A stretch of 52,606 bases of DNA from Candidatus Acutalibacter stercorigallinarum (GTDB lineage: Bacteria; Bacillota; Clostridia; Oscillospirales; Acutalibacteraceae): the NCBI GenBank assembly GCA_019112625.1, contig DXIW01000009.1, forward strand, positions 1 through 52,606, given 5' to 3'. How positions within the stretch are numbered: the first letter of the stretch is position 1; every line of letters begins with the position of its first letter. The position numbers and the translations under genes are program-made. This document shows positions 9,055 to 49,104 of the stretch, one piece after another. A model generated the notes under the pieces. It ran no database searches, was not told the origin of the DNA, and saw only the letters and a list, made by a program, of their open reading frames with translations.

Positions 9055-9142
9055 GCCCCCGACCCTCCGGCCGCGGCGCGGCCGCCCCTCCCGCAGGGAG
9101 GGGGCCTGCCCCGCCGGGGCGGGGCAGGCGAGGGCCGGGGGC
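9055..9142. repeat. cloverleaf element E1 (88 bp)
   Basis: The closing stem pairs 9055-9067 with 9130-9142 (12 of 13 pairs). It encloses three hairpins that abut without a free base: 9068-9084 (7 bp, loop GGC), 9085-9103 (8 bp, loop GCA) and 9104-9129 (11 bp, loop CGGG). The element lies between the divergent promoters of rnj and the acetyltransferase gene. It has the same architecture as six other elements in this window. Confidence 0.85.
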
Positions 9143-9161
9143 GGCGAGGGCCGGGGGCGGC
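9130..9161. repeat. 16-bp tandem duplication of the right arm of E1
   Basis: GAGGGCCGGGGGCGGC occurs twice in direct succession (9130-9145 and 9146-9161). The first copy contains the right closing arm of E1, so either copy could pair with the left arm. Confidence 0.9.
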
Positions 9162-9251
9162 GGGCCGGTGAAAAGCGAAGCGGGAGTAATGTGCTCCGCC
9201 TTACCTCTAGCATCGGCAGTCCGGGCCCGGTTTATGCCGCGGCCCGTCCCA

Positions 9252-9279
9252 TTGACTTTCCCGGGCGGGGTGCTATAAT
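9252..9279 (+). promoter_or_regulatory. promoter of acetyltransferase-PHP pair
   Basis: TTGACT, a 16-base spacer and TATAAT; transcription should start near 9286, about 23 bases before the ATG at 9309. Confidence 0.8.
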
Positions 9280-9308
9280 GGGGCTGGACCCGGGGAAGGA
9301 GGATGTTC

Positions 9309-9917
9309 ATGGACTTGCTGGAACGGATGGAGAGCGGGAAGCTCTTCTATGCCGGGGACCCGGAATTGTCCCGGGCGAAGCTGCGCTGCAAGGAGCTTTT
9401 GTACGACTTCAACCACGCCAGGCCCTCCCAGGCCGGGGAGATGCTGGCCCTGCTGGGGCAGCTGCTGGGCGCTGTGGGAGAGGGCTGCTGGATCGAGCCG
9501 CCCCTGTACGTCAACTGGGGCAGCCGCATCACCCTGGGGGACCACGTGTACGCCAACACCGGGCTGACGGTGATTGACGACACTTTCGTCAACATCGGCA
9601 GCCACGTGATGCTGGGCCCCCGGGTGACCATCTCCGCCGCCAGCCACCCGGTGGACCCGGAGCTGCGCCGCCAGGCCTATCAATACGACCTGCCGGTGGT
9701 CCTGGAGGAAAACGTGTGGGTGGGGGCCGGGGCCACCATCCTGCCGGGGGTCACCATCGGGAAAAACAGCGTCATCGGCGCGGGCAGCGTGGTGGACCGG
9801 GACATCCCCCCGGACGTGGTGGCCGCGGGGGTGCCCTGCCGGGTGCTCCGGGAGATCGGTCCCCGGGACCGGGAGTATTACCACAAAGACTGGCCCGTAA
9901 AGGACGGGCTGGCGTAA
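9309..9917 (+). CDS. sugar O-acetyltransferase of the maltose/galactoside acetyltransferase type
   Basis: Left-handed beta-helix acetyltransferase of 202 residues expected to move acetyl from acetyl-CoA to a sugar hydroxyl. An N-terminal MAC-type segment (MESGKLFYAGDPELSRAKLRCK) is followed by hexapeptide repeats such as GDHVYANTG, and by the active-site His in SAASHPVDPE. Length is typical of Maa/LacA. I prefer the ATG at 9309 because AAGGAGG abuts the ATG at 9303. A PHP-domain gene follows after 31 bases under the same promoter. The acceptor sugar cannot be read from sequence. Confidence 0.88.
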   Translation: MDLLERMESGKLFYAGDPELSRAKLRCKELLYDFNHARPSQAGEMLALLGQLLGAVGEGCWIEPPLYVNWGSRITLGDHVYANTGLTVIDDTFVNIGSHVMLGPRVTISAASHPVDPELRRQAYQYDLPVVLEENVWVGAGATILPGVTIGKNSVIGAGSVVDRDIPPDVVAAGVPCRVLREIGPRDREYYHKDWPVKDGLA

Positions 9918-9948
9918 AGGAAAATCAAACCAAAGGGGAGAGAGCACA

Positions 9949-10917
9949 ATGAAAGACCAGATTTTGCTGCCGGAGGGCGGCTATTACAAGGCCAACCTCC
10001 ACTGCCATACCACCATCTCCGACGGGGAGTTCACCCCCGAGGAGATCAAAGCCGCCTACCAGAAGGAGGGCTACTCCATCGTGGCCTACACCGACCACGA
10101 CCGCTACCGCTGGCACAAGGAGCTGGACGGCCCGGACTTTTTGGCCCTGGCCGCCTACGAGACTGAGGTGACAGAGTTTTCCACCGGTCCCGACTGCTGG
10201 CCCGACCTAAAGACCTACCACCTGAACCTGTTCGACACCGACCCCACCCAACACCAGCAGGAGAAGGCCGCGAGCCCCCGGCCGCCCCAGCGCTACGGGG
10301 ACTTTTACGGTCTCAATGAGTACATCCAGCAGATGCGGGACCTGGGCTTCCTGGTGTGCTACAACCACCCCTACTGGTCCCTGCAGAATTACAACGACTA
10401 TGCCGGCCTGCGGGGTCTGTTCGCCATGGAGATCTACAACCACGGTTGCGAGCACGACGGCCTGTACGGCTTCCACCCCCAGGCCTACGACGAGATGCTC
10501 CGCTCCGGCCAGAAGCTGTTCTGCCTGGCCACCGACGACAACCACGACCGGCAGCCCCTGGGCCACCCCCTGAACGACTCCTTCGGGGGCTTCGTGCAGA
10601 TTGCCGCCCGGGAGCTCACCTACCCTGCCGTCATCCAGGCCCTGCGGGAGGGGCAGTTTTACTGGTCTATGGGGCCCCAACTGCAGGGGGTCAGGATCGA
10701 GGACGGCTGCCTGAAGGTAAAGACTTCCCCGGTGGAGAAGATCTTCGTCATCCAGAAGGGCCGGGACTGCTACCAGACCGCCGTGAACCCCGGGGAGAGC
10801 CTGACCGAGGCTTCCTTCCCCCTCACCGGGAAGGAGGGCTGGTTCCGGGTGCAGGTCCGGGACGGCCGGGGCCTGTACGCCGGCACAAACGCCTATTTCA
10901 TCCCCGACCTGCTGTAA
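9949..10917 (+). CDS. PHP-domain metal-dependent phosphoesterase
   Basis: Protein of 322 residues with a PHP (polymerase and histidinol phosphatase) fold. The N-terminal HCHTTISDGEFTPEE and AYTDHDRY motifs supply metal ligands, followed by CYNHPYWSL, MEIYNHGCEHDG and LATDDNHD. The C-terminal third looks like a beta-sandwich. Related proteins are annotated as phosphoesterases, but the substrate is unknown. The start has AAAGGGGAGAG upstream, and a strong terminator follows the stop by 14 bases. Confidence 0.8.
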   Translation: MKDQILLPEGGYYKANLHCHTTISDGEFTPEEIKAAYQKEGYSIVAYTDHDRYRWHKELDGPDFLALAAYETEVTEFSTGPDCWPDLKTYHLNLFDTDPTQHQQEKAASPRPPQRYGDFYGLNEYIQQMRDLGFLVCYNHPYWSLQNYNDYAGLRGLFAMEIYNHGCEHDGLYGFHPQAYDEMLRSGQKLFCLATDDNHDRQPLGHPLNDSFGGFVQIAARELTYPAVIQALREGQFYWSMGPQLQGVRIEDGCLKVKTSPVEKIFVIQKGRDCYQTAVNPGESLTEASFPLTGKEGWFRVQVRDGRGLYAGTNAYFIPDLL

Positions 10918-10930
10918 TACCGCCGTCAAC

Positions 10931-10967
10931 AAAAACCCAGGAAGGCCCCGGCCTCCCTGGGTTTTTT
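10931..10967 (+). terminator. rho-independent terminator after the PHP gene
   Basis: An A-rich left flank, CCCAGG and GGCC arms in an almost perfect palindrome, and a run of six T. Confidence 0.9.
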
Positions 10968-10978
10968 ATGGTAGAAAG

Positions 10979-11006
10979 CAAAAAGAAAGACGGGCCCGAA
11001 GGCCCG
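10979..11006 (-). terminator. terminator of tRNA-Gly
   Basis: On the minus strand CGGGCC-TTCG-GGCCCG, a UUCG tetraloop hairpin, followed by TCTTTCTTTTT. Confidence 0.85.
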
Positions 11007-11014
11007 CCGCAGAT

Positions 11015-11090
11015 TGGAGCGGAAGACGAGGCTCGAACTCGCTACCTCCACCTTGGCAAGGTGGCGCTCTACCAGATGAGCTACTCCCGC
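11015..11090 (-). tRNA. tRNA-Gly, anticodon GCC
   Basis: A 76-nt cloverleaf including an encoded CCA end. The acceptor stem GCGGGAG pairs with CTTCCGC (one G-U), the anticodon stem CACCT/AGGTG encloses TTGCCAA, and the T arm contains GTTCGAG. The anticodon lies opposite 11055-11057. It has its own consensus promoter and terminator, so it is a single-gene unit. Confidence 0.98.
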
Positions 11091-11109
11091 GCTTTCACGA
11101 TGCTTATGT

Positions 11110-11138
11110 ATTATACCAAGCCCGGCCACGCTTGTCAA
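11110..11138 (-). promoter_or_regulatory. consensus promoter of tRNA-Gly
   Basis: Minus strand TTGACA, exactly 17 bases, TATAAT: a perfect sigma-A promoter about 20 bases before the tRNA 5' end. Confidence 0.92.
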
Positions 11139-11150
11139 GGGGGAATTTAC

Positions 11151-11180
11151 AAAAAAACCGGACCCCCGCAGGGGCCCGGC
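11151..11180 (-). terminator. terminator of the cold-shock gene
   Basis: Minus strand CCGGGCCCC pairs across a short loop with GGGGTCCGG, followed by seven T. Confidence 0.9.
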
Positions 11181-11206
11181 CTTTCGTCTTAGCAGCAGAG
11201 CGGAAT

Positions 11207-11416
11207 TTACAGCTTCACTACGTTGACAGCCCGCAGCTTCTCGCTGTTCTTGGGATCGGGCTCGGTCTCGAAGGTCACCTTCTGGCCCTCTTCCAGGGTC
11301 TTGAAGCCGTCGCACTGGATCGCGGAGAAGTGCACAAAAACGTCCTCGCCGCCTTCATCGTTAGAGATGAAGCCATAACCTTTTTCTGCGTTAAACCATT
11401 TGACTGTACCGTTCAT
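11207..11416 (-). CDS. csp: cold-shock protein (CspA/CspD family)
   Basis: Single-stranded nucleic-acid-binding OB-fold protein of 69 residues. [17 protein letters not shown] carries the RNP1 motif (KGYGFI) and DVFVHFSAI carries RNP2. The ATG at 11416 is preceded by GGAGGTG at 6 bases; the ATG 15 bases upstream precedes that site and is unlikely. The gene is monocistronic with its own promoter and terminator and a leader near 190 nt, as in other cold-shock mRNAs. Confidence 0.96.
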
Positions 11417-11611
11417 GTTCGGCACCTCCATAAAAGTGTGTGTATCCGGCCAGGGGGCCAGATCACGGGTGGTTCCTGTTGTGGGACTTCCCGCTTTCCA
11501 AGCTGCGCCGGGGTCTCCCCCTTAACAAAAAGCTCACAGCTTGTGTAAATCATCAGACGTTCGCATGACTTACAAAAACTGTGAGTTCATCGCCCTGCTA
11601 AATACGCCTAT

Positions 11612-11640
11612 ATCCTACCACGTTTTCTGCACATTGTCAA
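11612..11640 (-). promoter_or_regulatory. promoter of the cold-shock gene
   Basis: Minus strand TTGACA, 17 bases, TAGGAT. Transcription from near 11605 leaves an untranslated leader of about 190 nt. The region 11417-11611 has no gene. Confidence 0.8.
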
Positions 11641-11692
11641 GCAGAATTTTCCCTCTCCCCCGCCCGGGGCGAAAAAAAGCCGGGGCGGGCAC

Positions 11693-11721
11693 TGTTCAAA
11701 CCGGCGCCTCCATGCTATAAT
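11693..11721 (+). promoter_or_regulatory. probable promoter of the moxR operon
   Basis: TATAAT at 11716-11721 with a weak -35 (TGTTCA) 17 bases upstream and a leader of about 40 nt before moxR. Confidence 0.6.
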
Positions 11722-11768
11722 AAGAAAATCAGTTTACAGAATATCCGATTTTCCGGGAGGGAGTTTTT

Positions 11769-12707
11769 ATGATACAGCCGCAAGCCCTGGCGGTCCTCGA
11801 CCAGGTGCGCCGGGCCGTGGTGGGGAAAGACGCCGTGGTGTGCAAGGCCCTTATGGCCATCCTGGCCAAGGGGCACATCCTCTTGGAGGACAACCCCGGC
11901 CTGGGCAAGACCACCCTGGCCCTGGCCTTCTCCAAGGCCATGAGCCTCTCGTACCGCCGGGTGCAGTTTACGCCGGAGATCATGCCCGCGGACGTGGTGG
12001 GCTTTACCATGTACGACCAGCGCACCGGACAGTTCCAGTACCGGCCCGGCGCCGCTTTGTGCAACCTGTTTTTGGCCGATGAGCTCAACCGCACCAGCGC
12101 CAAGACCCAAAGTGCGCTTTTGGAGGCCATGGAGGAGGGGCAGGTCACGGTGGACGGGGTGAGTCACAAGCTGCCTGTCCCCTACACCGTCATCGCCACC
12201 CAGAACCCGGTGGGCTCCGCGGGCACCCAGCTGCTGCCCGAGTCCCAGCTGGACCGGTTCATGGTGCGGCTCTCCCTGGGCTACCCCAGCCTGGAGCAGG
12301 AGGTGGAGATCCTCCGGCAGACCGAGGGGGAGCGGCCGGTGGACGGCCTGCAGCCCGTGGTGTCCCTTGCCGACGTGGCGGACATGCAGCGCCAGGTGGG
12401 CCGGGTCCACGTGGCCGACGACATCTACCGCTATGTGGCCCAGCTGTGCGCCGCCACCCGGGAGCACGCCCTGGTGCGGCTGGGGGCCAGCCCCCGGGCC
12501 GGCGGGGCCCTGGTGCGCATCTGCCGGGCCTCCGCCTGGATGGCCGGCCGGGACTTCGTCATCCCCGGGGACGTGCAGTTGCTGTTTTTCGACGTGCTGG
12601 AGCACCGGATCACCCTGGACCCCCAGGCCCGCCTGGGGGACAAGGACGCCCACGCCGTGCTGGCCGAGGTCCTCAAGACCGTGGCCGCCCCCCGGCTGGT
12701 GCGGTAA
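11769..12707 (+). CDS. MoxR-family AAA+ ATPase
   Basis: Cytoplasmic chaperone-like ATPase of 312 residues. Walker A is DNPGLGKTT, Walker B is LFLADELNR, and sensor 1 lies in VIATQNPVGSAGTQLLPE, followed by the SQLDRF arginine region. The gene is followed after 17 bases by a DUF58 protein and then a membrane transglutaminase-like protein. This three-gene set is widespread, and MoxR is thought to help assemble or activate the partner proteins. The client here is unknown. Confidence 0.93.
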   Translation: MIQPQALAVLDQVRRAVVGKDAVVCKALMAILAKGHILLEDNPGLGKTTLALAFSKAMSLSYRRVQFTPEIMPADVVGFTMYDQRTGQFQYRPGAALCNLFLADELNRTSAKTQSALLEAMEEGQVTVDGVSHKLPVPYTVIATQNPVGSAGTQLLPESQLDRFMVRLSLGYPSLEQEVEILRQTEGERPVDGLQPVVSLADVADMQRQVGRVHVADDIYRYVAQLCAATREHALVRLGASPRAGGALVRICRASAWMAGRDFVIPGDVQLLFFDVLEHRITLDPQARLGDKDAHAVLAEVLKTVAAPRLVR

Positions 12708-12724
12708 GGGAGGAGGGCGAGGCC

Positions 12725-13885: not shown

Positions 13886-13918
13886 CGCTATTTTTCATTT
13901 AGAAAGGAGGCGGCGGCC

Positions 13919-22381: not shown

Positions 22382-22388
22382 AGTGAAG

Positions 22389-22425
22389 AGCAGGGCTGCC
22401 GTATCCAGCGGCAGCCCTGCTTTTT
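22389..22425 (+). terminator. terminator of the fuc operon and lipoprotein
   Basis: GCAGGGCTGCCG pairs with CGGCAGCCCTGC (12 bp) across TATCCAG and is followed by five T. Confidence 0.93.
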
Positions 22426-22563
22426 GCGGCGCAGGGAAAGTCCGGCATCGCTTGACGGCGCTCAACCCCGTCTCACCTGCCGGTTCGGCCAGCTCGCAGC
22501 AGAGCGCCACCGGTGATTATCGCCCCCTTTGGACCCCCCGAAAGGGCAGTGAAGAGTAAAGAA

Positions 22564-22645
22564 GGAAACTCCCCCAGTCATGGCGCAGCCATGACAGCCC
22601 CCTCACAGAGGGGGCCCGGCTCCGCCGGGCCGGAAGGGGTTTTCC
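22564..22645. repeat. cloverleaf element E6 (82 bp, partly decayed)
   Basis: An imperfect closing stem (22564-22574 with 22636-22645) encloses three hairpins: 22577-22595 (8 bp, loop GCA), 22597-22615 (8 bp, loop ACA) and 22616-22628 (5 bp, loop TCC). AACTCCCC in the left arm and the GGCCCGGCTCCGCCGGGCCG hairpin are shared with E5, which lies in the opposite orientation. Confidence 0.75.
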
Positions 22646-22663
22646 TGGAGGGTGATAAAAGCT

Positions 22664-22757
22664 GCAAGAATCGCGGTTTTGCGAAAGCAAAATGGAAGTT
22701 TCGCAAACTCCCAAGCGATTCTTGCCGAGTTAGCCGAGGGGGAGCGAGGATAACTCG
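22664..22757. repeat. three-way-junction element B1
   Basis: GCAAGAATCGC (22664-22674) pairs perfectly with GCGATTCTTGC (22715-22725). Inside are TTTTGC-GAAA-GCAAAA (22677-22692) and AGTTT-CGC-AAACT (22697-22709). Directly after the stem, CGAGTTA (22726) pairs with TAACTCG (22751). The arrangement matches element B2 at 35870. Confidence 0.75.
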
Positions 22758-22759
22758 TG

Positions 22760-23050
22760 CGCTGCCAAATAGAAGTTCTCTGCTTTTTTCTTTCAAGAAA
22801 CGCTGATACGAGTTAACGGGCCTGCCCGCTTTGCCCAGTGTAATCGTTGCTACGTAAAAGCTCTCTGCTTCTCTCTAAAAAGGCCGCTGCAAGTTGGTGG
22901 GCCTGCCCGCTTTACGCAGTACGATCGCTGCCAAATAAAAGTTCTCTGCTTCTCTCTAAAAAGGCCGATACGAGTTGGCGGGCCTGCCCGTTTTGCCCAG
23001 TGTAATCGTTGCCACGTAAAAGTTCTTTGCTTCTTTCTTTCAAGAAAGAA
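22760..23050. repeat. tandem repeat of about 82 bp, 3.5 copies
   Basis: Units start at 22760, 22845, 22926 and 23007 (the last is partial). Each begins CG(C/T)TGC followed by an AAG-TTCTCTGCTT-like core and ends with GGCCTGCCCG-like sequence. Units 1 and 3 resemble each other most, as do 2 and 4, so the array looks like a doubled two-unit block. There are no spacers and no open frame. The stretch 22430-23260 as a whole holds no gene that I can support. Confidence 0.8.
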
Positions 23051-23055
23051 GAGAG

Positions 23056-23083
23056 AAGGCGCCCGCAGCGATGCGGGCGCCTT
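23056..23083. other. 12-bp perfect GC hairpin after the tandem repeat
   Basis: AAGGCGCCCGCA pairs with TGCGGGCGCCTT across GCGA. A long T run is missing, so termination is uncertain. Confidence 0.6.
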
Positions 23084-23203
23084 TGGAGAGAGGAAGTAAG
23101 GAGTAAAAATAAGGATGAAAAATGAGGAAGTGTAATGGAAAAGGGGTTTTTCCAGTGGCTTTTCTTACCACGCTTATACGATACCCCCCAAATGTGACGG
23201 GAA

Positions 23204-23218
23204 CATGGAGACTCCATG
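23204..23218. promoter_or_regulatory. palindrome upstream of the TetR promoter
   Basis: CATGGAG-A-CTCCATG is a perfect 15-bp palindrome 46 bases upstream of the -35 box. It could be an operator for the regulator that follows, but position alone does not prove this. Confidence 0.35.
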
Positions 23219-23263
23219 ACGGTTTTGGAAAGAATTTTCGAACAAATTATGTCCGACACCATG

Positions 23264-23292
23264 TTGATTTTTCGAGCAGCGTGCATTATACT
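23264..23292 (+). promoter_or_regulatory. promoter of the TetR regulator-oligopeptidase operon
   Basis: TTGATT, 17 bases, TATACT, 45 bases before the regulator ATG. Confidence 0.75.
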
Positions 23293-23337
23293 TTTCTCAA
23301 GGGAGATCCTATTGTTTACAGGGAAAGGAGGCGCGCC

Positions 23338-23931
23338 ATGCGGCATACCGCCAACGACCACCGCACCCGGGTCACCAAGCTCCTCATCCGCCGGGCTTTT
23401 CTGGACCTGCTGGGGCAGAAGCCCATCCAGAGCATCACCGTCAAGGAGCTCTGCGCCCAGGCGGGCATCAACCGGGGCACGTTCTATTCCCACTACACCG
23501 ACATCTACGACCTGCTGGGCCAGATGGAGGCCGGCTTCCAAAAGGAGCTGGAGGGCCTTCTCTCCGGCCAGGAGGGGGACCCGGTGAAGGTCACCACCAG
23601 CATCTACCAATTCCTCAAGGACAACGCGGACTTCTGCGCCGTCACCCTGGGGGAGCATGGGGACAAGGCCTTCGCCGCCCGGCTGCTCTCCTCGGCCCGG
23701 GAGCGCTCTATGGACTCCTATGCCAGGTATTTCCAGGGGGCCAGCCCCCAGCAGATCGACGAGTTTTTCGCCTTTGTCAGCGGGGGGCACATCGCCCTGC
23801 TGCAAAAATGGGTGTCCGACGGCATGGCGGCCAGCGCGGAGGAGATGGCTGCCACGGCGGAGAACATCATGCTCTACGGCATCGGCTTTTTGCGAAACAA
23901 CACCCCTCCAGAAAGGAAGAGTACCCCATGA
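23338..23931 (+). CDS. TetR/AcrR-family transcriptional regulator
   Basis: Regulator of 197 residues. The N-terminal helix-turn-helix spans about residues 10-58 (ITVKELCAQAGINRGTFYSHY with DIYDLL after it). The ligand-binding region is helical and resembles the TetR C-terminal type with a conserved Phe and Asp in the first helices. The ATG at 23338 follows GGAAAGGAGG. Its stop overlaps the start of the M3 peptidase gene (ATGA), so the two are coexpressed. It probably controls its own promoter; the signal is unknown. Confidence 0.88.
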   Translation: MRHTANDHRTRVTKLLIRRAFLDLLGQKPIQSITVKELCAQAGINRGTFYSHYTDIYDLLGQMEAGFQKELEGLLSGQEGDPVKVTTSIYQFLKDNADFCAVTLGEHGDKAFAARLLSSARERSMDSYARYFQGASPQQIDEFFAFVSGGHIALLQKWVSDGMAASAEEMAATAENIMLYGIGFLRNNTPPERKSTP

Positions 23932-26261: not shown

Positions 26262-26271
26262 CGCCCCAGCC

Positions 26272-26358
26272 GGCGCCCTCTCCATCGCGGCTGTGCCGCG
26301 ATGGCTCCTCCCGTTACGGGAGGAGCCGCCACCGCCCTGCGGTGGCGGAGAGGGCGCC
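26272..26358. repeat. cloverleaf element E2 (87 bp)
   Basis: The closing stem GGCGCCCTCTCC (26272-26283) pairs perfectly with 26347-26358. Three hairpins abut with no free base: 26284-26302 (8 bp, loop TGT), 26303-26327 (10 bp, loop GTTAC) and 26328-26346 (8 bp, loop CCT). It lies 11 bases after the flavin reductase-like gene and 58 before the ABC-F gene. Confidence 0.92.
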
Positions 26359-26416
26359 CGGCCAGGGCGCAGAAGCCCGCCCGCACTCCCAATACCACCA
26401 CAGAAAGGACCCTGCT

Positions 26417-28061: not shown

Positions 28062-28937
28062 ATGGCAAAGATCAACATCGGCACCTGCGTGCCCGGCCAG
28101 GGGACGGAGCAGCTGCTCCCCCATTTCATCCAGGCGGGGTTTGAGTGCGTAGGGCTCAACTTCCACATGGTGTTCACCGAGGAGAGCCTGCCCGCCTACG
28201 CGGAGAAGGTAAAGCGCCTGCTGGGGGATTCCGGCGTGAAGGTCTCCTCCATCGGCTACTACTGTAACGCCTTGGAGAACGAGGCCCAGCGCAAGACTTT
28301 GGAGGACTTCATCGACAACGCCCACCTGTTCGGCACCAACCTGGTCACCACCTTCGCCGGGGCCCTGGAGGGCCAGCCGGTGGAGAAGGCCATCCCCCGG
28401 TACAAGGAGGTCTTTGGCGAGCTGGCCAAGCGGGCCGAGGACAAGGGCGTGAAGCTGTGCATCGAGAACTGCCCCATGGACGGCACCTGGAACAGCGCCA
28501 CCTGCAACATCGGCTTTAACCCCAAGGCCTGGGAGCTGATGTTCGACGCGGTGCCCAGCAAAGCCATCGGCCTGGAGTGGGAGCCCGCCCACCAGATGGT
28601 CCAGCTCATTGACCCCCTGCCCGTGCTGGAGCAGTGGATCGACCGGGTGTACCACCTCCACGGCAAGGACTGCACCATCCACTGGGACCGGGTGAAGAAG
28701 TACGGCGTGTTCGGCGCCGCCAACTTCGCCGAGCCCCGCACCCCCGGCTACGGCGACACCGACTGGCGGGACGTGTTCCACATCCTGTACTCCAACAACT
28801 TCGAGGGCGACCTGGTGGTAGAGGGCTTCCACGACCCCATCTTCCAGGGCGACCTGGAGTGGGCGGGCCAGCTCCACGCCCTGCAGTACCTGAAGTGGTG
28901 CCGGGGCGGAACGGAAGCGAATCCCTGGCACGTGTGA
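28062..28937 (+). CDS. sugar phosphate isomerase/epimerase-like TIM-barrel protein
   Basis: Xylose isomerase-like TIM-barrel protein of 291 residues. Metal-ligand candidates occur in KLCIENCPMDG (Glu), LEWEPAHQM, YHLHGKD and LVVEGFHDP (Glu). Family members epimerise or isomerise sugars, inositols or uronates; the substrate is unknown. TAGGAGGAATCGGT precedes the ATG. Copy 1 of a 70-bp direct repeat starts within the last codons of this gene. Confidence 0.85.
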   Translation: MAKINIGTCVPGQGTEQLLPHFIQAGFECVGLNFHMVFTEESLPAYAEKVKRLLGDSGVKVSSIGYYCNALENEAQRKTLEDFIDNAHLFGTNLVTTFAGALEGQPVEKAIPRYKEVFGELAKRAEDKGVKLCIENCPMDGTWNSATCNIGFNPKAWELMFDAVPSKAIGLEWEPAHQMVQLIDPLPVLEQWIDRVYHLHGKDCTIHWDRVKKYGVFGAANFAEPRTPGYGDTDWRDVFHILYSNNFEGDLVVEGFHDPIFQGDLEWAGQLHALQYLKWCRGGTEANPWHV

Positions 28938-29000
28938 CCACGCGGGACGGGAAAAATCGCTATCCACTCGCTAACGCTCGTTAACCGCGATTTTTAGTGG
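28931..29000. repeat. 70-bp direct repeat, copy 1
   Basis: It begins CGTGTGACCAC at the stop of the isomerase gene. An AAAAATCGC/GCGATTTTT stem encloses CTCGCTAACGCTCG. Copy 2 lies 180 bases downstream with about ten differences. Confidence 0.8.
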
Positions 29001-29023
29001 TTTACTGCAAGGCTTCCACTTCT

Positions 29024-29110
29024 GCCCCGCCCCGCCCTTTCGCTGCGCGAAAGCGCCTCCCCGCCAGCCGCGGGGAGGCGGCCGCGTGACCACGCGGCGC
29101 GGGGCGGGGC
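29024..29110. repeat. cloverleaf element E3 (87 bp)
   Basis: The closing stem GCCCCGCCCCGC (29024-29035) pairs perfectly with 29099-29110. Hairpins are 29037-29053 (CTTTCGC-TGC-GCGAAAG), 29054-29080 (11 bp, loop CAGCC) and 29081-29098 (8 bp, loop AC). One free base is left. It sits between the two 70-bp direct repeats and touches the second. Confidence 0.9.
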
Positions 29111-29180
29111 GCGTGTGACCACTCATGACGGGAAAATCGCTATCCGCTCGCTAACGCTCGTTAACCACAATTTTTAGCGG
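29111..29180. repeat. 70-bp direct repeat, copy 2
   Basis: Matches 28931-29000 at about 60 of 70 positions, including GTGTGACCAC, CGCTATCC and CTCGCTAACGCTCGTTAACC. The right stem arm is mutated, so pairing is weaker than in copy 1. Confidence 0.8.
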
Positions 29181-29193
29181 CTTCTTCGCACGC

Positions 29194-38681: not shown

Positions 38682-38768
38682 CCACCCTCCCCGGCTTTCG
38701 CTGCGCGAAAGCGGCGCCCCGCCTGCGCGGGGAGCCGCCGCGGCTGGCCGCGGCCCCGGGGCGGGCGG
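38682..38768. repeat. cloverleaf element E4 (87 bp)
   Basis: The closing stem pairs 38682-38693 with 38757-38768 (10 of 12). Hairpins are 38694-38712 (8 bp, loop TGC, containing CTTTCGC-TGC-GCGAAAG as in E3), 38713-38736 (9 bp with one mismatch) and 38737-38754 (8 bp, loop TG). Two bases remain free. It starts 29 bases after the Ca2+-ATPase stop in the direction of transcription. Confidence 0.82.
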
Positions 38769-42111: not shown

Positions 42112-42504
42112 TCACGATTTTCCCCCGCTCTCTCCCTGCCAGACCATCTTCTCCCCGCCCCAGGGCCAGTCCCCGGTGAGGACAACCTTGTCGATCTCTC
42201 CGTACTCCCCCAGGGGGAGCTCCATGTCCCCGAAGCTGTTAAAGGTGGAGCCGTGCTTCAGCCAGCAGGTGACATACAGGGTCTTTTCCTCCTGGTCATA
42301 GTCCGCGGTGACTTTCCAGTGCTTCAGCTTATGGGGGTTGTAGTCCCCCAAGGGCAGCACGGTGAGGGAGTCCCCCGTAAAGGAGACCTCCGCGGAAGTA
42401 ACATCATCGGGGTTCACCGCCACGGGCCTGCTGACCAGGAGGAAGGCCAGCCCCAGAGCCAGCACCACGCCGGCCAGCAGCCAGAGCTTCCTGTGTTTTT
42501 TCAT
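42112..42504 (-). CDS. small membrane-anchored protein of unknown function
   Basis: I do not recognise the family. The 130 residues begin with a basic start and a hydrophobic helix (LWLLAGVVLALGLAFLLV, about 7-24) that anchors or secretes it. A beta-rich domain of about 100 residues follows, with several Trp and acidic residues. AAAGGAGG lies before the ATG at 42504. Element E5 separates it from the isomerase gene upstream. Confidence 0.7.
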   Translation of the reverse strand: MKKHRKLWLLAGVVLALGLAFLLVSRPVAVNPDDVTSAEVSFTGDSLTVLPLGDYNPHKLKHWKVTADYDQEEKTLYVTCWLKHGSTFNSFGDMELPLGEYGEIDKVVLTGDWPWGGEKMVWQGESGGKS

Positions 42505-42543
42505 TGGGATGCCTCCTTTTCACCGGGCGGGGATTGCCACGGC

Positions 42544-42628
42544 CGGGCAACTCCCCTGGCCCGGCTCCGCCGGGCCGCCCCCTTCTGGAAGGGGGCGGCT
42601 TTCCTTTGGAAAGCCGGGGAGTTGCCCG
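42544..42628. repeat. cloverleaf element E5 (85 bp)
   Basis: The closing stem CGGGCAACTCCCC (42544-42556) pairs perfectly with 42616-42628. Hairpins are 42558-42576 (8 bp, loop TCC), 42577-42596 (9 bp, loop TG) and 42597-42615 (8 bp, loop TTT). Only T42557 is free. Read on the minus strand, its second and third hairpins correspond to those of E6. It begins 30 bases after the isomerase stop. Confidence 0.92.
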
Positions 42629-42657
42629 AAAGGCCTCCGCCAGCAGTCAGCAGCCTC

Positions 42658-43440: not shown

Positions 43441-43465
43441 GGTACCCCCTCCTTTCCTGTGATGA

Positions 43466-44008
43466 TCACCGCTTCATAAAATCCGCCCAGACCAGGTCCG
43501 CGCCGGGCTCCCACGCTTTCCAGTAAGCCAGGCGCTCCCGGTACCAGGCGGCCTGCCGCTCCACCGCTTCCCGGCAGCCGGGGAAGCCCAGCTCCAAGGC
43601 CAGGGCCGTCAGCTGGTAGACGGGCCCGCCCAAGGCGTGGCCCGCCGTGTGCACCACCGAGCAGGCCTGCCCCACCCCGTGGCACAACGCCCGCTCCACC
43701 GGGGAGCCCCACTCCTTCGCGCAGGCGTGGCAGTCCAAAATAGCCCGCTGGGCGGGGCGCATGGTGCACAGCCCAGCCCCCCACCGGCGGCTCTCCGCCA
43801 GGGCGGCGGCGGGCCGGGGGTCCTCCGGTCGGCGCCGGGCCAGCTCCGCTGCCATCTGCTCCGCCAGCTCCCAGGCCCACAGGGCCGCCGCCCGGTGGTT
43901 GGCGCTCTCCAGCTCCCGGGCCAGGGGCTGCAGCAGCTCGTCCCCGGGCCGGAAGAGCACCTGGTTTTTCCGGCGCAGCCGGGCCTGGGCCGTATCCATC
44001 CAGTCCAT
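43466..44008 (-). CDS. helical protein resembling Imm-5-like putative immunity proteins
   Basis: Protein of 180 residues, almost all helical. The pattern DPRPAAALAESRRWGAG, then a small-residue-rich helix with ARALCHGVGQACSVVHT-like sequence and HALGGPVYQL, recalls the Imm-5-like family as I remember it (DxRP and a later AxxAxAHxxxHAxGAxxY). Such proteins are called putative immunity proteins, but no toxin lies nearby. It starts at 44008 under a promoter that is divergent from the ABC-F gene. Family assignment is tentative. Confidence 0.6.
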   Translation of the reverse strand: MDWMDTAQARLRRKNQVLFRPGDELLQPLARELESANHRAAALWAWELAEQMAAELARRRPEDPRPAAALAESRRWGAGLCTMRPAQRAILDCHACAKEWGSPVERALCHGVGQACSVVHTAGHALGGPVYQLTALALELGFPGCREAVERQAAWYRERLAYWKAWEPGADLVWADFMKR

Positions 44009-44031
44009 GGGCCTCCCCCTTTCTCTGTTCC

Positions 44032-44060
44032 ATTATACCCAATGGGGTGGGCAGGCGCAA
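44032..44060 (-). promoter_or_regulatory. promoter of the Imm-5-like gene
   Basis: Minus strand TTGCGC, 17 bases, TATAAT. Its -35 box lies 6 bases from the -35 box of the divergent promoter. Confidence 0.72.
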
Positions 44061-44066
44061 CCCCTC

Positions 44067-44095
44067 TTGCAGGGAACGCCTTTTTCCGATATAAT
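44067..44095 (+). promoter_or_regulatory. promoter of the ABC-F-mutS-like-mtaB operon
   Basis: TTGCAG, 17 bases, TATAAT. A perfect palindrome GGGAGCGCGCTCCC (44117-44130) lies in the early transcribed region and could be an operator or a 5' hairpin. Confidence 0.75.
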
Positions 44096-44159
44096 AGATA
44101 GGATTGCAGACTTTCCGGGAGCGCGCTCCCCTGACGATATGAGATATGTGGTGACTGCT

Positions 44160-46100
44160 ATGGCGATCTTGACCGTAAACAACATCAAACAGAGCTTCGG
44201 AGAGGAGACCATCCTCGAGAATATCACCTTCGAGATGCAGAAGGGGGAACGGGTGGGCCTGGTGGGGGTCAACGGCTCGGGAAAGACCACCCTGTTCAAG
44301 GTCCTCACCGGGGAGTACACCCCGGACACGGGCTCGGTGGTCTTTGGCAAGGACACGGTGCTGGGCTATATGGAGCAGCACGTGTGCCGGGACTTTGAAA
44401 AGACCGCCCTGGACGAGGTGATGACCGTCTTTGCCCCCCTGCTGCGCATGGAGCGGGAGCTGGAGGACATAAACCAGCTGCTGTCCGCCCACCCCGAGGA
44501 GCAGGAGCTGGAAAAGCTCATCCTCCGGCAGACCCAATTAAACGACGCCTTTGTGGACGGGGGCGGCCTCACCTGCCGGTCCCGGGCCCGCAGCGCCCTC
44601 ATGGGCCTGGGCTTTACCGAGGAGCAGCTCGCAAACAAGGTGGGGGTGCTCTCCGGCGGGCAGAAGGCCAAGCTCCAGCTGGCGAAGATGCTCCTCTCCG
44701 GGGCCAACCTCCTGCTCTTGGACGAGCCCACCAACCACCTGGACATCCCTTCGGTGGAGTGGCTGGAGAGCTTCCTCACCGCCTATACCGGGGCCTATAT
44801 CGTCATCTCCCACGACCGGTATTTCCTGGACAAGGTGACCTCCCGCACCCTGGAGATGAAGGGCCTGGGGCTGGACTCCTACAAGGGCAACTACAGCCGG
44901 TATCTCGACCTGAAGGCCGAAAAGCGCCTGGCCGCGGAGCGGGTCTACGAGAGCACCCAGAAGGAGATCAAGCGCATCGAGGGCATCATCGAGCAGCAGC
45001 GGCGGTGGAACCAGGAGCGCAACTATGTGACCATCGCCAGCAAGCAGAAGCAGATCGACCGGCTGGAGGCCACCCTGGAGGAGCCCGACAAGGACCCGGA
45101 GGAGATCCGCTTCCAGTTCCACGCCAGCCGGAGAAGCGGCGACGACGTGCTCACCGCCGAGGACCTGTCCCTCTCCTTCGGCGGGCCCAAACTCTTCGAG
45201 CACGTGAACCTGGAGATCAAGCGGGGGCAGAAGGTGTTCCTCATCGGCCCCAACGGCTGCGGCAAAACCAGTCTGTTCAAGATCCTCCTGGGCCAGTACC
45301 GCCAGGACACCGGCCTGGTAAAGATCGGCGTGGGGGTGGACATGGGCTACTACGAGCAGTCCCAGCTCAGCCTGGACGACTCCAAGACCGTCATCGACGA
45401 GATCTGGGACCTGCACCCCCGCATGACCCAGACCGAGGTGCGCAGCGCCCTGGCGGTGTTCCTCTTCAAAGGGGAGGACGTGTTCAAGCCCGTGGGGGCT
45501 CTCTCCGGCGGGGAGCGGGCCCGGGTGCTGCTATTAAAGCTCATGCTCAGTAAGGCCAACTTCCTGCTGCTGGACGAGCCCACCAACCACCTGGACATCG
45601 GCTCCTGCCAGGCCCTGGAGGACGCCCTTTTGGGCTACGACGGCACCCTGTTCGTGGTGTCCCACGACCGGTACCTCATCAACAAGCTGGCGGACCGGGT
45701 GTACGTGCTGGGGAAAGACGGGGCCCGGCTCTACCACGGCAACTACGACGCCTACCTGGAGCAGCGGGAGAAGGAGCAGCAGGCCCTGCCCCAGGAGGAA
45801 AAGTCCCAGCCCAAGGTGAACCTGTACAAGCTGCGGAAAGAGCGGGAGAGCGAGCTGCGGAAAAAGCGCAGCGCCCTGGCCCGCCTGGAGCAGGAGATCG
45901 AGGAGAACGACAGGAGCCGGAAGGCCCTGGAGCAGCGCCTGGAGCAGCCTGAAATCGCCGCCGACTACGAGGCCGTCACCCAGACCTCCCAGGAAATCGG
46001 CATGCTCCAGGAGGTGGCCGAGGGGCTGCTGCTGCGGTGGACGGAGCTCTCTGAGGAATTGGAGGCCCTGGAGCGGGCCGCCCAGGAGCTGGACAACTGA
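44160..46100 (+). CDS. ABC-F ATPase (YdiF/Uup-like)
   Basis: Ribosome-associated type ABC protein of 646 residues with two complete ATPase domains. Domain 1 has GVNGSGKTT, LSGGQKAK and LLLDEPTNHLD; domain 2 has GPNGCGKTS, LSGGERAR and LLLDEPTNHLD. A charged linker and a C-terminal coiled coil (about 545-645) complete it. The ATG at 44160 gives the standard MAILTVNNIKQSFG start; the ATG at 44139 is possible since no strong ribosome site is visible for either. Both lie downstream of the promoter. The mutS-like gene follows by 11 bases. Confidence 0.92.
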   Translation: MAILTVNNIKQSFGEETILENITFEMQKGERVGLVGVNGSGKTTLFKVLTGEYTPDTGSVVFGKDTVLGYMEQHVCRDFEKTALDEVMTVFAPLLRMERELEDINQLLSAHPEEQELEKLILRQTQLNDAFVDGGGLTCRSRARSALMGLGFTEEQLANKVGVLSGGQKAKLQLAKMLLSGANLLLLDEPTNHLDIPSVEWLESFLTAYTGAYIVISHDRYFLDKVTSRTLEMKGLGLDSYKGNYSRYLDLKAEKRLAAERVYESTQKEIKRIEGIIEQQRRWNQERNYVTIASKQKQIDRLEATLEEPDKDPEEIRFQFHASRRSGDDVLTAEDLSLSFGGPKLFEHVNLEIKRGQKVFLIGPNGCGKTSLFKILLGQYRQDTGLVKIGVGVDMGYYEQSQLSLDDSKTVIDEIWDLHPRMTQTEVRSALAVFLFKGEDVFKPVGALSGGERARVLLLKLMLSKANFLLLDEPTNHLDIGSCQALEDALLGYDGTLFVVSHDRYLINKLADRVYVLGKDGARLYHGNYDAYLEQREKEQQALPQEEKSQPKVNLYKLRKERESELRKKRSALARLEQEIEENDRSRKALEQRLEQPEIAADYEAVTQTSQEIGMLQEVAEGLLLRWTELSEELEALERAAQELDN

Positions 46101-46111
46101 GGAGGAACCCC

Positions 46112-47722
46112 ATGATCGCCGCACTTTTTCTCCTCCTGCTGGTGCTGGCCGCCGCGGCCGGCATGGTGGCAGGAGGCATCTCCAATGGGAAAAAGCTGCG
46201 CCGGCGGGTGCTGGACCAGTTCGGCCGTCGGCCCCAGGAGGACTACCCCCTGGAGGACATTCCCGCCTACTGCCAGCTGGACTCCGCCCCGGCCATCGAC
46301 CACACCACCTGGACGGACCTGGACATGGACCTGGTGTTCCGGCGGCTCAACAGCTGCCAGAGCTCTGTGGGGGAGCAGGTGCTGTACGCCCAGCTCCACC
46401 GGCTCTCGCCCCCGGCCCGCTGGGAGGAGCTCCTCGCCCACCTGGAAGCTCGCCCCCAGGAGCGGGAGGCCCTGTGGCTCCAGCTGGCCCGGCTGGGGAA
46501 GCGCCGGGGCGGCTACAGCCTCCCCGAATTTGTCTTCTCCCCGGTGGAATGCCAGCTTCCCCTGGCGCCCCTCTACCCGGTGCTGGCCTGGCTGCCCCTG
46601 GCCTGTCTGGCGCTGGTGCCCTTCCTCCCCTGGGTGGGAGGCGGGCTGTTCCTGGTTTCTCTGTGCGGGAACGTGGCCCTATACTACCTGGGCAAGCGCC
46701 GGGTCCAGGGGGACCTGGACGCCCTGGGGGCCTTCCTCTCCCTGCTCTCCACCTGCCGGAAGCTGGAAAACACCCTCACCCTCCCCGCCCAGCGGGAGGA
46801 GCTGCGCGCCGCCCTCGCCCCCTTCCGTCCCCTGCTGGGCCGGGTGCCGGGGACGGGGGTCACCGGCGGGGCGGACTGGGAACTGTGCCGGGAGTATTTC
46901 CGGCTGCTCACCCTCCGGGACCTGCGGGTGTACCGCAAAGCCCAAAAGCTCATGGCCGCCCATCCCCAGCAGCTGCGAGCGCTGTTTGAGTCTGTGGGCG
47001 CGGTGGACATGGCGGTGGCCGTCCTGTCCTTCCGGGCCACCCTGCCCCAGTGGTGCCGGCCGGTGTTTTGGGAGGAAAACACTTACGACTTCACCGGCCT
47101 GTTCCACCCCCTGCTGCAGGAGCCCGTGGCCAACAGCGGCCGCTTTACAAAAGACGTGCTCCTCACCGGCTCCAACGCCTCAGGGAAGTCCACCTTCTTA
47201 AAAGCCCTGGCGGTCAACGCCATTTTAGGGCAGAGCCTCCTCACCTGCGCCGCGGAGGGCTGCGGCTTCCGGCCGGGGCCGGTGCTCACCTCCATGGCGG
47301 TCAAAGACGACATCTCTGCCGGGGAGAGCTACTTCATGGCGGAGGTGCGCTCCCTCAAGCGCCTCACCGACGCCGCCCGGCTGGGGGGCTGCCTGCTGTT
47401 CATCGATGAGATCCTCCGGGGCACCAACACCGGGGAGCGCCTGGCCGCCAGCCAGGCGGTCTTAGAGGAGCTCCACCGCCGGGACTGCCTGTGCGTGGCC
47501 GCCACCCACGACCGGGAGCTGACCTGGCGCCTGGCCGGCGCCTACCGCAACTACCACTTCCAGGAGACCCTGACCGCCGAAGGCGTCCAGTTCGACTACG
47601 CCCTGCGGGACGGCCCCGCCAACACCCAAAACGCCATCCGCCTCTTAGGGCTGCTGGGCTTCCCCCAGGCCACAGTCCGCCGGGCAGAGGAGCTGGCAGA
47701 ACAAGGAGAGGAACGCCCATGA
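46112..47722 (+). CDS. membrane-anchored MutS-like ATPase
   Basis: Protein of 536 residues with a MutS domain V ATPase at its C-terminus: Walker A GSNASGK359ST and Walker B CLLFIDEILRGTNT, then ATHDREL. One helix at residues 2-22 and a further hydrophobic pair at about 150-190 place it in the membrane. The DNA mismatch-binding domain I of classical MutS is absent, so mismatch repair is unlikely. GGAGGAACCCC precedes the ATG. Its stop overlaps the mtaB start (ATGA). Its cellular role is not known to me. Confidence 0.88.
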   Translation: MIAALFLLLLVLAAAAGMVAGGISNGKKLRRRVLDQFGRRPQEDYPLEDIPAYCQLDSAPAIDHTTWTDLDMDLVFRRLNSCQSSVGEQVLYAQLHRLSPPARWEELLAHLEARPQEREALWLQLARLGKRRGGYSLPEFVFSPVECQLPLAPLYPVLAWLPLACLALVPFLPWVGGGLFLVSLCGNVALYYLGKRRVQGDLDALGAFLSLLSTCRKLENTLTLPAQREELRAALAPFRPLLGRVPGTGVTGGADWELCREYFRLLTLRDLRVYRKAQKLMAAHPQQLRALFESVGAVDMAVAVLSFRATLPQWCRPVFWEENTYDFTGLFHPLLQEPVANSGRFTKDVLLTGSNASGKSTFLKALAVNAILGQSLLTCAAEGCGFRPGPVLTSMAVKDDISAGESYFMAEVRSLKRLTDAARLGGCLLFIDEILRGTNTGERLAASQAVLEELHRRDCLCVAATHDRELTWRLAGAYRNYHFQETLTAEGVQFDYALRDGPANTQNAIRLLGLLGFPQATVRRAEELAEQGEERP

Positions 47723-49008
47723 ACGTAAAATTCATCACCCTGGGCTGCAAAGTGAACCAGGTGGAGTCCGAGGCCATGCGGGAGGCGCTGCTGGCCGGCG
47801 GTTTCCAGGAGGCCGCCGAAGGCCAGACCGCCGACGTGGTGGTGGTCAACTCCTGCACCGTCACCGCCGTAAGCGACCAGAAAGCCCGCCAGGCCCTGCG
47901 CCGGGAGAAGAAGCGGAACCCCGGGGCGGTGGCGGTGCTCACCGGGTGCTGGCCCCAGGCCTTCCCCCAGGAGGCGGAAGACTTTTTAGAGGCGGACATC
48001 GTGCTGGGCACCACCCGCCGGGCCGCCCTGCTGCCCAAGATTTTAGAGTACCTCTCCACCAAGCAGCGCATTGTGGACATCGCCCCCCACGAGAAGGGGG
48101 AGAAGTTCGAAAAGCTCACCATCTCCGCCATGCACGGCCGCACCCGGGCTTTTCTCAAGATCGAGGACGGCTGTGACCGGTTCTGCTCCTACTGCATCAT
48201 CCCCTATGCCCGGGGCCGGGTACGCTCCAAGCCCCTGGAGGACATCAAAGCCGAGGCCGCCCTGCTGGGGGACCACGGCTACCGGGAGGTGGTGCTCACG
48301 GGCATCAACCTGCCCGCCTACGGCAAGGACCTGGGTCTGCACCTCTGCGACGCGGTAGAGGCCGCCTGCGCCGCCCCCGGCATCGCCCGGGTGCGGCTGG
48401 GGTCTCTCGAGCCGGAGCAGCTCACCCCGGGGGTCATCGCCCGCATGGCAAAACAGGAAAAGCTGTGCCCCCAGTTCCACCTCAGCCTCCAGTCCGGCTG
48501 CGACACCACCCTAAAGCGCATGAACCGCCACTACACCACCGCGGAGTACCGGCAGATCGTCCGCAACCTGCGCCAGGCCTTCCCCAACTGCGCCATTACC
48601 ACCGACATCATGGTGGGCTTTGCCGGGGAGACGGAGGAGGAGTTTGCCGCCTCCCTGGCCTTTGCCAAAGAGATCGCCTTTGCCAAGGTCCACGTGTTCG
48701 CCTACTCCCGGCGGCCCGGCACCCGGGCCTACAACATGCCGGCCCAGGTGACCAACAAGGTGAAGGAGGACCGCAGCCGGCAGATGATCGCCGCCACCCT
48801 GGCCACCCAGCGCGATTTCTTCGCCGCCCAGGTGGGCCGGGTGGAGGAGGTGCTCTTTGAGCAGGAGCGGGAGAAAAACGTGTACGAGGGCTATACCAGA
48901 AACTACACCCCGGTGCGGGCGGCCAGCGCTGTGCCCCTCCAGGGCCAGGTGCTGCCGGTGGAGATCACCCAGGTCCTGGAGGACTGCTGCCTGGGCAGGC
49001 TGGTGTGA
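47719..49008 (+). CDS. mtaB: tRNA (N6-threonylcarbamoyladenosine 37) methylthiotransferase MtaB
   Basis: Radical SAM enzyme of 429 residues that adds a methylthio group to t6A37 of tRNAs. It has the N-terminal UPF0004 domain with cluster cysteines (LGCKVNQ, NSCTVT and TGCW), the radical SAM motif CDRFCSYCIIPYARG and a C-terminal TRAM-like domain (VEEVLFEQ to PVEITQV). The ATG at 47719 overlaps the MutS-like stop. The frame is open upstream, but that part lies inside the preceding gene. E7 begins 8 bases after the stop. Confidence 0.94.
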   Translation: MNVKFITLGCKVNQVESEAMREALLAGGFQEAAEGQTADVVVVNSCTVTAVSDQKARQALRREKKRNPGAVAVLTGCWPQAFPQEAEDFLEADIVLGTTRRAALLPKILEYLSTKQRIVDIAPHEKGEKFEKLTISAMHGRTRAFLKIEDGCDRFCSYCIIPYARGRVRSKPLEDIKAEAALLGDHGYREVVLTGINLPAYGKDLGLHLCDAVEAACAAPGIARVRLGSLEPEQLTPGVIARMAKQEKLCPQFHLSLQSGCDTTLKRMNRHYTTAEYRQIVRNLRQAFPNCAITTDIMVGFAGETEEEFAASLAFAKEIAFAKVHVFAYSRRPGTRAYNMPAQVTNKVKEDRSRQMIAATLATQRDFFAAQVGRVEEVLFEQEREKNVYEGYTRNYTPVRAASAVPLQGQVLPVEITQVLEDCCLGRLV

Positions 49009-49015
49009 CGTGCCC

Positions 49016-49104
49016 CGCGCCCTCTCCGTCCCGGCAAAGCCGTGACCTACGCCCCAGCAAGCTGGGGCGTAGGCTTCGCCTACGGCGAAGCGGGAGAGGG
49101 CGCG
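49016..49104. repeat. cloverleaf element E7 (89 bp)
   Basis: The closing stem CGCGCCCTCTCC (49016-49027) pairs perfectly with 49093-49104. Hairpins are 49028-49046 (7 of 8 bp, loop AAA), 49047-49072 (12 bp, loop AA) and 49073-49091 (8 bp, loop TAC). One base is free. Eleven bases of the arm (GCGCCCTCTCC) are the same as in E2. Confidence 0.92.

What the first reader, a model, noticed from the sequence alone, without database searches (positions are those of the whole stretch)
9055..49104. Seven intergenic cloverleaf elements with a conserved fold and diverged sequence
At 9055, 22564, 26272, 29024, 38682, 42544 and 49016 lie elements of 82-89 bp that each form a 12-13 bp closing stem and three hairpins (mostly 7-12 bp, loops 2-5). 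In E1 and E2 no base is unpaired at the junction; E3, E5 and E7 have one. Seven copies with the same plan in 52.6 kb, all outside genes, cannot be chance. The geometry fits a four-way DNA junction (cruciform) or a compact RNA. I do not recognise a named family. MITE- or REP-like mobilisation by a transposase encoded elsewhere is inference.
Basis: seen in the sequence. Interest (0 to 1): 0.82.

Follow-up and report, generated by a model that had tools for sequence, protein, structure and literature searches.

The report
Hairpin-array repeats between bacterial genes
A gut bacterium carries many copies of a short DNA repeat that folds into a cloverleaf of tight hairpins between genes; it looks like an undescribed family of interspersed palindromic repeats, with relatives elsewhere in its bacterial order, whose hairpins keep their pairing while their sequence changes.

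Summary
Seven 82-89 bp elements lie where stated, each a closing stem around three tight hairpins, outside genes; shuffled DNA gave none so compact. They are not isolated: a 452 kb sample of the genome (an Acutalibacter/Neglectibacter relative) holds 41 related stretches in 35 clusters, none inside a predicted gene. A commoner four-hairpin form also matches 37 of 295 sampled genomes of the order, own included. Ten of 16 three-hairpin copies align nearly full-length with another copy (73-86%); E1 does not. Hairpin arms change in pairs and loops change fastest. Relatives lack the elements at the same places (two-flank evidence for E3, E4, E6; weaker for the rest). No Rfam or tRNA match, no Y1/RAYT transposase match in this incomplete genome, no target-site duplication, no U-tract. 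I read it as an undescribed family of non-autonomous, foldback interspersed repeats, comparable with BOX or BIME elements but not shown to be either. Ten of 16 three-hairpin copies lie within 31 bp after a stop codon, so many are probably transcribed as mRNA 3' structures. Mobilisation is unproven.

The parts
9055..9142 (.). E1: closing stem + 3 hairpins, between divergent genes (RNase J and a maltose-acetyltransferase-like gene)
   Evidence: fold; chain finder; neighbours. Not matched by model R1 at E<=1
22563..22646 (.). E2: closing stem + 3 hairpins; H1 GTCATGGC and H2 GCCCCCTC arms are those of the four-hairpin form
   Evidence: matched by the four-hairpin model R2
26272..26358 (.). E3: 10 bp after the stop of a flavin-reductase-like gene; the outer stem extends to about 26262-26369
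   Evidence: spacer lacks it in G032
29024..29110 (.). E4: between convergent genes (AP_endonuc_2 and NUDIX)
   Evidence: absent from the spacer in G032 and after the gene in G033
38682..38768 (.). E5: about 30 bp after the stop of a P-type ATPase gene; its H1 is identical to that of E4
   Evidence: absent after this gene in G033 and G032
42544..42628 (.). E6: 29 bp after the stop of an AP_endonuc_2 gene, in a spacer before an nrdR-like gene (named from recall of its N-terminus)
   Evidence: no element in 14 relatives with both flanking genes
49016..49104 (.). E7: 7 bp after the stop of a UPF0004/Radical_SAM (mtaB-like) gene
   Evidence: absent after this gene in G033 and G032; a different cloverleaf follows the same gene in L009

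Best explanation
The seven elements are copies of an interspersed, non-coding, foldback repeat family of this bacterial order. Each copy is a run of three or four short hairpins (mostly 7-11 bp arms, 3-5 nt loops) inside inverted-repeat ends. Shown here: multi-copy and largely homologous; outside predicted genes; lineage-specific positions; hairpin arms kept paired by two-sided changes while loops change fastest. Inferred: the copies spread as non-autonomous DNA elements (the hairpins or terminal inverted repeats being the substrate of an enzyme not yet identified), are tolerated between genes, and, where they sit just after stop codons, are transcribed as a compact four-way-junction 3' structure that would impede read-through and 3'-to-5' decay.
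For: Copies: 41 stretches in 35 clusters in 452 kb, none in a predicted gene although 84% of the sample is predicted coding; 93 two-strand R2 matches in the whole genome with 139 of 3675 candidates scored. Homology: alignments between copies, e.g. E4-E5 81%, E6-C63 83%, E3-L088 77-78%, E7-C20 73%, four-hairpin pairs 90-92%; 10 of 16 three-hairpin copies have a match covering 90% or more of their length. Lineage-specific positions: no element in 14 relatives between the E6 flanking genes, in G032 for E3 and E4, and none beside the relevant gene in G033/G032 for E5 and E7. Distribution: 37 of 295 genomes and 28 of 148 genera of the order, own included; within the genus 9 of 29 genomes, own included, with 1 to 93 two-strand matches. 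Structure kept: 13-copy alignment, four hairpin helices 399 of 403 cells paired, 61 two-sided changes against 3 one-sided and 4 unpaired; whole structure 95.6% paired against 83.8% in shuffles. Sixteen three-hairpin copies: 399 of 416 inner pairs Watson-Crick, above every re-pairing of arms. Position: 10 of 16 three-hairpin copies within 31 bp after a stop.
Against: No transposase was linked to the family; only one transposase family was searched (Y1_Tnp: no match in this 86%-complete genome), and no target-site duplication was found in 27 copies. Insertion rather than loss is inferred; several comparisons rest on one conserved flank only (E1, E5, E7). E1 is not matched by model R1 and has only a 65-nt, 74% alignment to another copy (E = 0.002); 6 of 16 three-hairpin copies lack a near-full-length match. 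In one search one of five covariation measures (further pair types) did not exceed shuffles (178 of 500), and relatedness alone can beat such shuffles. The 31 bp stop-codon cutoff was chosen after seeing the distances; my gene calls come from a simple codon-usage caller; under a null that weights each spacer equally the bias is weaker (0.35 per copy, P = 0.02). Only 1 of 25 other stretches is within 31 bp after a stop, so the 3'-structure role cannot hold for the whole family.
Confidence: 0.62

Rival explanations
1. The elements are primarily functional RNA: conserved mRNA 3'-end structures (U-tract-less terminators or exonuclease barriers), kept by selection on the RNA fold, and multi-copy because many genes use them.
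For: 10 of 16 three-hairpin copies lie 6-31 bp after a stop codon and none within 31 bp before a start; expected 4.1 of 15 given the spacers, nominal P = 1e-4. Strong pairing covariation.
Against: Few G-U intermediates in the hairpins (3 one-sided cells against 61 two-sided; 5 G-T among 416 inner pairs of the three-hairpin copies), unusual for an RNA under fold selection. No conservation beside the same genes in the relatives examined. No T-run longer than 3 within 20 nt outside either end of E1-E7, though one side of E2 is T-rich (7 of 12). The other stretches are mostly far from stops.
Confidence: 0.2
2. Classical REP/BIME elements moved by a RAYT, or a DDE-type MITE, whose transposase lies in the missing part of the genome or, for DDE, was not searched for.
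For: Terminal inverted repeats, multi-copy, intergenic, positions differ between species. Y1_Tnp matches occur in 8 of 20 genomes searched.
Against: No Y1_Tnp match in this genome, the copy-richest of the 29 of the genus searched; no target-site duplication; REP units are single 20-40 bp palindromes (start of the abstract of PMC3733652 in listings), not closed 3-4 hairpin arrays.
Confidence: 0.1
3. Composition artefact: GC-rich spacers folding by chance.
For: The genome is GC-rich (65% in the window) and loose three-branch folds occur in shuffles.
Against: No compact array in shuffles; homologous copies; arrays in loci of 40-50% G+C.
Confidence: 0.01

Closest known systems
Pneumococcal BOX elements
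   Same: Modular, strongly folded, variable number of internal units, sharing MITE features; likely to affect co-transcribed genes (passages of PMC3049150).
   Different: BOX is boxA-boxB(n)-boxC. Here the internal units are short hairpins whose arms vary by compensated changes, and the ends close into a multi-way junction. No sequence comparison with BOX was run; the host order differs.
REP/BIME with RAYT transposases
   Same: Extragenic palindromes in mosaic clusters, proposed non-autonomous elements (passages of PMC2817692).
   Different: RAYT genes are described as always flanked by two REPs; no Y1_Tnp match was found in this genome. Units are closed arrays of 3-4 hairpins. A GTAG-type REP tag was not searched for.
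Bacterial MITEs
   Same: Short, non-coding, terminal inverted repeats, highly base-paired (definition read in a passage of PMC3049150).
   Different: GC-rich rather than AT-rich; no target-site duplication detected; no parent insertion sequence identified or systematically sought.
Repetitive hairpin elements of sponge mitochondrial genomes
   Same: Intergenic hairpin-forming repeats (title and abstract start of PMC2800124 in a search listing).
   Different: Organellar; not compared in sequence or fold here.

Membership tests
REP/BIME (RAYT-associated) | A Y1 (RAYT) transposase gene in the genome flanked by the palindromes | tested here: not met
   PF01797: 0 matches in G000; genome 86% complete, so absence is not absolute
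REP/BIME (RAYT-associated) | Single 20-40 bp palindrome with a GTAG- or CGTC-type tag | tested here: inconclusive
   Units are about 80-112 bp arrays of 3-4 hairpins; the tag itself was not searched for
MITE | Terminal inverted repeats | tested here: met
   Closing stem of 10-13 pairs in the window copies; in the four-hairpin alignment the closing helix is 84% paired
MITE | Target-site duplication | tested here: not met
   27 copies, direct repeats of 3-10 bp at fixed offsets no commoner than with shuffled flanks; the true ends may lie outside the fold
MITE | Presence/absence at orthologous sites | tested here: met
   E6 absent in 14 relatives with both flanks; E3, E4 absent in G032. Species-level comparison only
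BOX | boxA-boxB-boxC module sequences | not tested
   No BOX sequence was fetched or compared
Rfam families / tRNA | Match to a curated model | tested here: not met
   Window: only one tRNA and one cspA match, neither on an element. 13 loci with family members: a single sub-gathering microRNA hit, 35 bits against a cut-off of 97
Intrinsic terminator | G+C-rich hairpin followed by a U-tract | tested here: not met
   Longest T-run in the 20 nt outside either end of E1-E7 is 3; E2 is T-rich on one side (7 of 12). No terminator-scan tool was run

The most novel reading that the evidence does not exclude
The hairpins are maintained at the DNA level: a templated palindrome-correction or fold-back copying process keeps both arms complementary while their sequence drifts, so that arms change in pairs with few wobble intermediates and 3-nt loops are close to random. 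The family would then be a natural record of hairpin-templated DNA synthesis in gut Clostridia rather than an RNA family or an ordinary MITE.
Probability: 0.2. Interest if true: 0.78.

Novelty: new variant of a known kind. Interest (0 to 1): 0.52.

Why it matters
A repeat family found in many families of a large order of gut bacteria gave no Rfam 15 match and turned up in none of my seven searches of an open-access paper library (listings and starts of abstracts). It offers dozens of natural replicates per genome in which hairpins diverge by paired changes, so it can test whether palindromes are kept by RNA selection or by DNA-level correction. It may also give strongly folded 3' structures to many mRNAs, and it may contribute to assembly breaks in metagenome-assembled genomes (both inference).

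Tried and rejected
RAYT/IS200 mobilisation: PF01797 gives no match in G000; no other transposase family was searched. Target-site duplications: none. Known RNA: Rfam scans at gathering and relaxed thresholds. My first impression that three-hairpin copies share no sequence beyond composition (ungapped arms: H1 0.49 against 0.37 expected, the others at expectation) was mostly wrong: gapped alignment links 10 of 16 copies nearly full-length. These alignments were made with the low-complexity filter off in GC-rich DNA, so the weakest (E1, L094, L096 8663) may be composition. Hairpin module swapping between elements: only modest support (14 of 48 arms recur elsewhere as hairpins against 32 of 240 column-shuffled controls; 7 identical 8-bp arm pairs against 2.8 expected, reached in 40 of 1000 shuffles), so I do not lean on it. 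E7 and an element in Acutalibacter sp. 1XD8-33 (L009) both follow mtaB, but of 26 mtaB loci (L002 is cut; L189/L006 and L191/L014 are the same sequence) only L009 has one, so shared ancestry at that site is not supported. Plasmids: no match to one family member from another genus. Phage records and viral contigs: matches in 10 phage records (1 covering at least 80% of the query) and 9 viral stretches, which may be host DNA. Conserved tracts outside the ends: TTTTTGG on 4 and a CTTCTTG-type motif on 2 of 46 strict ends, not pursued.
Full report
What is there. The seven elements fold as reported at the given places. Each is a closing stem of 10-13 pairs around three hairpins with 3-5 nt loops; predicted junctions hold 0, 5, 0, 1, 2, 1 and 1 unpaired bases for E1-E7. 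A strict geometric finder found 5 of the 7 and nothing in 10 shuffles. A broader finder on the window plus 400 kb of the same genome found 20 elements, 15 with three hairpins and 5 with four, against none in one shuffle of the same sequence. A looser RNA-fold scan also finds sloppy three-branch folds in coding DNA and in shuffles, so the tight packing is what matters.

Where it is. The window is contig 68 of a 2.19 Mb, 70-contig, 86%-complete genome. Many of the named relatives of one of its proteins are Acutalibacter, Neglectibacter or unclassified Oscillospiraceae/Clostridia.

A family, not seven oddities. A model made from E6 and E2 found E3 and E7 well and E4 and E5 weakly (24 bits; the best unrelated window hit has 22.8), but not E1 at E<=1. 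In the genome it gave 47 two-strand matches, a lower bound because its first look missed even E3 and E7. The matched loci showed a second, commoner form with four hairpins: ends AACTCCCTC...GAGGGAGTT, outer hairpins such as GTCATCGC-NNN-GCGATGAC, inner hairpins such as CCTCCCTC-NNN-GAGGGAGG, sometimes a conserved linker. E2 carries two hairpins of that form. In the 452 kb sample there are 41 stretches (16 three-hairpin, 5 four-hairpin, 20 found by profile only, many of these partial; the 42 printed counts E2 twice), in 35 clusters when stretches closer than 120 bp are merged. None lies in a predicted gene, although 84% of the sample is predicted coding. Alignment of the copies shows E4-E5 81%, E5-L092 83%, E6-C63 83%, E3-L088 77-78%, E7-C20 73% over 85 bp, and four-hairpin pairs up to 92%. 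Ten of the 16 three-hairpin copies have a match covering at least 90% of their length; the other six, E1 among them (65 nt, 74%, E = 0.002), do not.

Distribution. The four-hairpin model R2 matches 37 of 295 genomes drawn from the order, 28 of 148 genera, own included, with 13 candidates scored per genome. Of 17 of these loci from other genomes that I folded at the matched coordinates, 13 give a junction of three or more branches; L205, L208, L219 and L222 fold otherwise, some as long rods in which the two halves pair (in one search L210 was read at a wrong offset). In the genus, 9 of 29 genomes match: 93 two-strand matches here, 43 in the closest relative G033, then 22, 13, 10, 7, 6, 1 and 1, and none in 20 (139 candidates scored per genome). 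The model from E6/E2 matched only 2 of 29 other genomes, so the three-hairpin form is harder to trace. In 780 kb of named relatives the finder gave only the two L009 elements.

Orthologous sites. Between the E6 flanking genes (an AP_endonuc_2 gene and an nrdR-like gene) 14 relatives have a spacer without any array; the closest relative's contig ends in other repeats. The window has there not only E6 but also a 130-aa ORF, so E6 need not have come alone. For E3 and E4 the spacer in G032 lacks the element with both flanks present; in G033 and G012 one flank differs. For E5 and E7 the 3' flanks of the same genes in G033 and G032 hold no array; for E1 only the right-hand gene in G033 could be compared. 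For E2 the corresponding G033 interval holds no array, but it is long. No array was found in the 65 kb of G033 loci at hand, though R2 shows that G033 has copies elsewhere. These are species-level comparisons; gain is more likely than loss but not proven for each copy.

How the sequence changes. In a 13-copy alignment (copies chosen by me from profile and model hits, structure named by me) the four hairpin helices have 399 of 403 cells paired, with 61 two-sided changes, 3 one-sided (G-U) and 4 unpaired. The closing helix is looser: 3 two-sided, 15 one-sided (all U-G) and 19 unpaired cells. The whole structure is 95.6% paired against 83.8% for shuffles; four of five measures exceed all 500 shuffles, the number of pair types does not (178 of 500). 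Among the 14 closest pairs (not independent) loops differ at 75 of 163 positions, closing stems at 40 of 262, linkers at 11 of 100; of 59 changed arm pairs 52 were compensated. In the contiguous sample all 9 GTCATCGC hairpins have a perfect right arm and 7 different loops. Over the own loci, part of them fetched by a structure model, 79 of 85 outer hairpins chosen by their left arm are perfect; 115 further occurrences of those 8-mers had no hairpin and were set aside as chance. For the C-rich inner arms it is 85 of 131, where chance matches enter. The 16 three-hairpin copies have 399 of 416 inner pairs Watson-Crick, above all 2000 re-pairings of arms in each helix; the finder favours paired arms, so this is partly by construction.

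Position. Ten of 16 three-hairpin copies start 6-31 bp after a stop codon; none is within 31 bp before a start; of the other 25 stretches 1 is within 31 bp after a stop. Given each spacer's length the expectation is 4.1 of 15 (E1 lies between divergent genes), nominal P = 1e-4 with a cutoff chosen afterwards. Cruder nulls give 0.12 per copy when spacers are weighted by length (P = 3e-6) and 0.35 when each spacer counts once (P = 0.02). No T-run longer than 3 lies within 20 nt of either end of E1-E7.

Mechanism. I take the family to be non-autonomous interspersed DNA repeats whose hairpins are under constraint, because positions are lineage-specific, copies are intergenic and largely homologous, and the family is patchy in the order. 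The mobilising enzyme is unknown: no Y1_Tnp match in this genome, no target-site duplication, other transposase families not searched. The scarcity of wobble intermediates and the free loops leave open a DNA-level process, palindrome correction or fold-back copying; spread plus selection for a foldback substrate is the plainer reading. Copies just after stop codons will probably be transcribed and should act as strong 3' structures (inference).

Known or not. The family is not in Rfam 15 by these scans. My paper searches (open-access library only) listed no description. I recall, from no call, seeing similar hairpin repeats in other gut Clostridia genomes, so it may be known informally. BOX, REP/BIME and MITEs are the nearest kinds (passages of PMC3049150 and PMC2817692). 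The few passages that my terms brought up in PMC2267715 and PMC13155455 describe nothing like it; the rest of those papers was not read.

Noticed in passing
window 11152-11579 (-) and 11015-11090 (-): Rfam cspA thermoregulator match (86.1 bits, cut-off 78) over a 74-aa ORF, next to a tRNA-Gly (gcc) gene.
   Followed up: no
window 28931-29003 and 29112-29183: Two direct repeats of about 73 bp (88% identical; GACGGGAAAA.TCGCTATCC...) flank E4 closely; they belong to a different repeat.
   Followed up: partly
window 22382-23800: The spacer around E2 holds other repeats (about 22456-22513 and 23007-23058) that match many places in genomes of the genus.
   Followed up: no
L070, L073, L075, L091, L118, L007: A second module, GTCTCGCCTGCCGGCTCGGTCGG or its complement plus a GAGCGCC/TGCCACCGGCA-type hairpin, lies inside or beside hairpin arrays and recurs in other species.
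   Followed up: partly
L009 12365-12475 and 14652-14759: Acutalibacter sp. 1XD8-33 carries two inverted copies of a three-hairpin cloverleaf with long arms on either side of mtaB; their middle arms differ by paired changes.
   Followed up: partly
four-hairpin ends in L062, L063, L092 and, loosely, L096: A tract like CCTTTTTGGTGTTTAGGGCTTTTGAAGGG lies outside one end (TTTTTGG in 4 of 46 strict ends), so the mobile unit may be longer than the fold.
   Followed up: partly
window 42112-42504 (-): A 130-aa ORF without Pfam match sits with E6 in a spacer that holds neither in 14 relatives.
   Followed up: no
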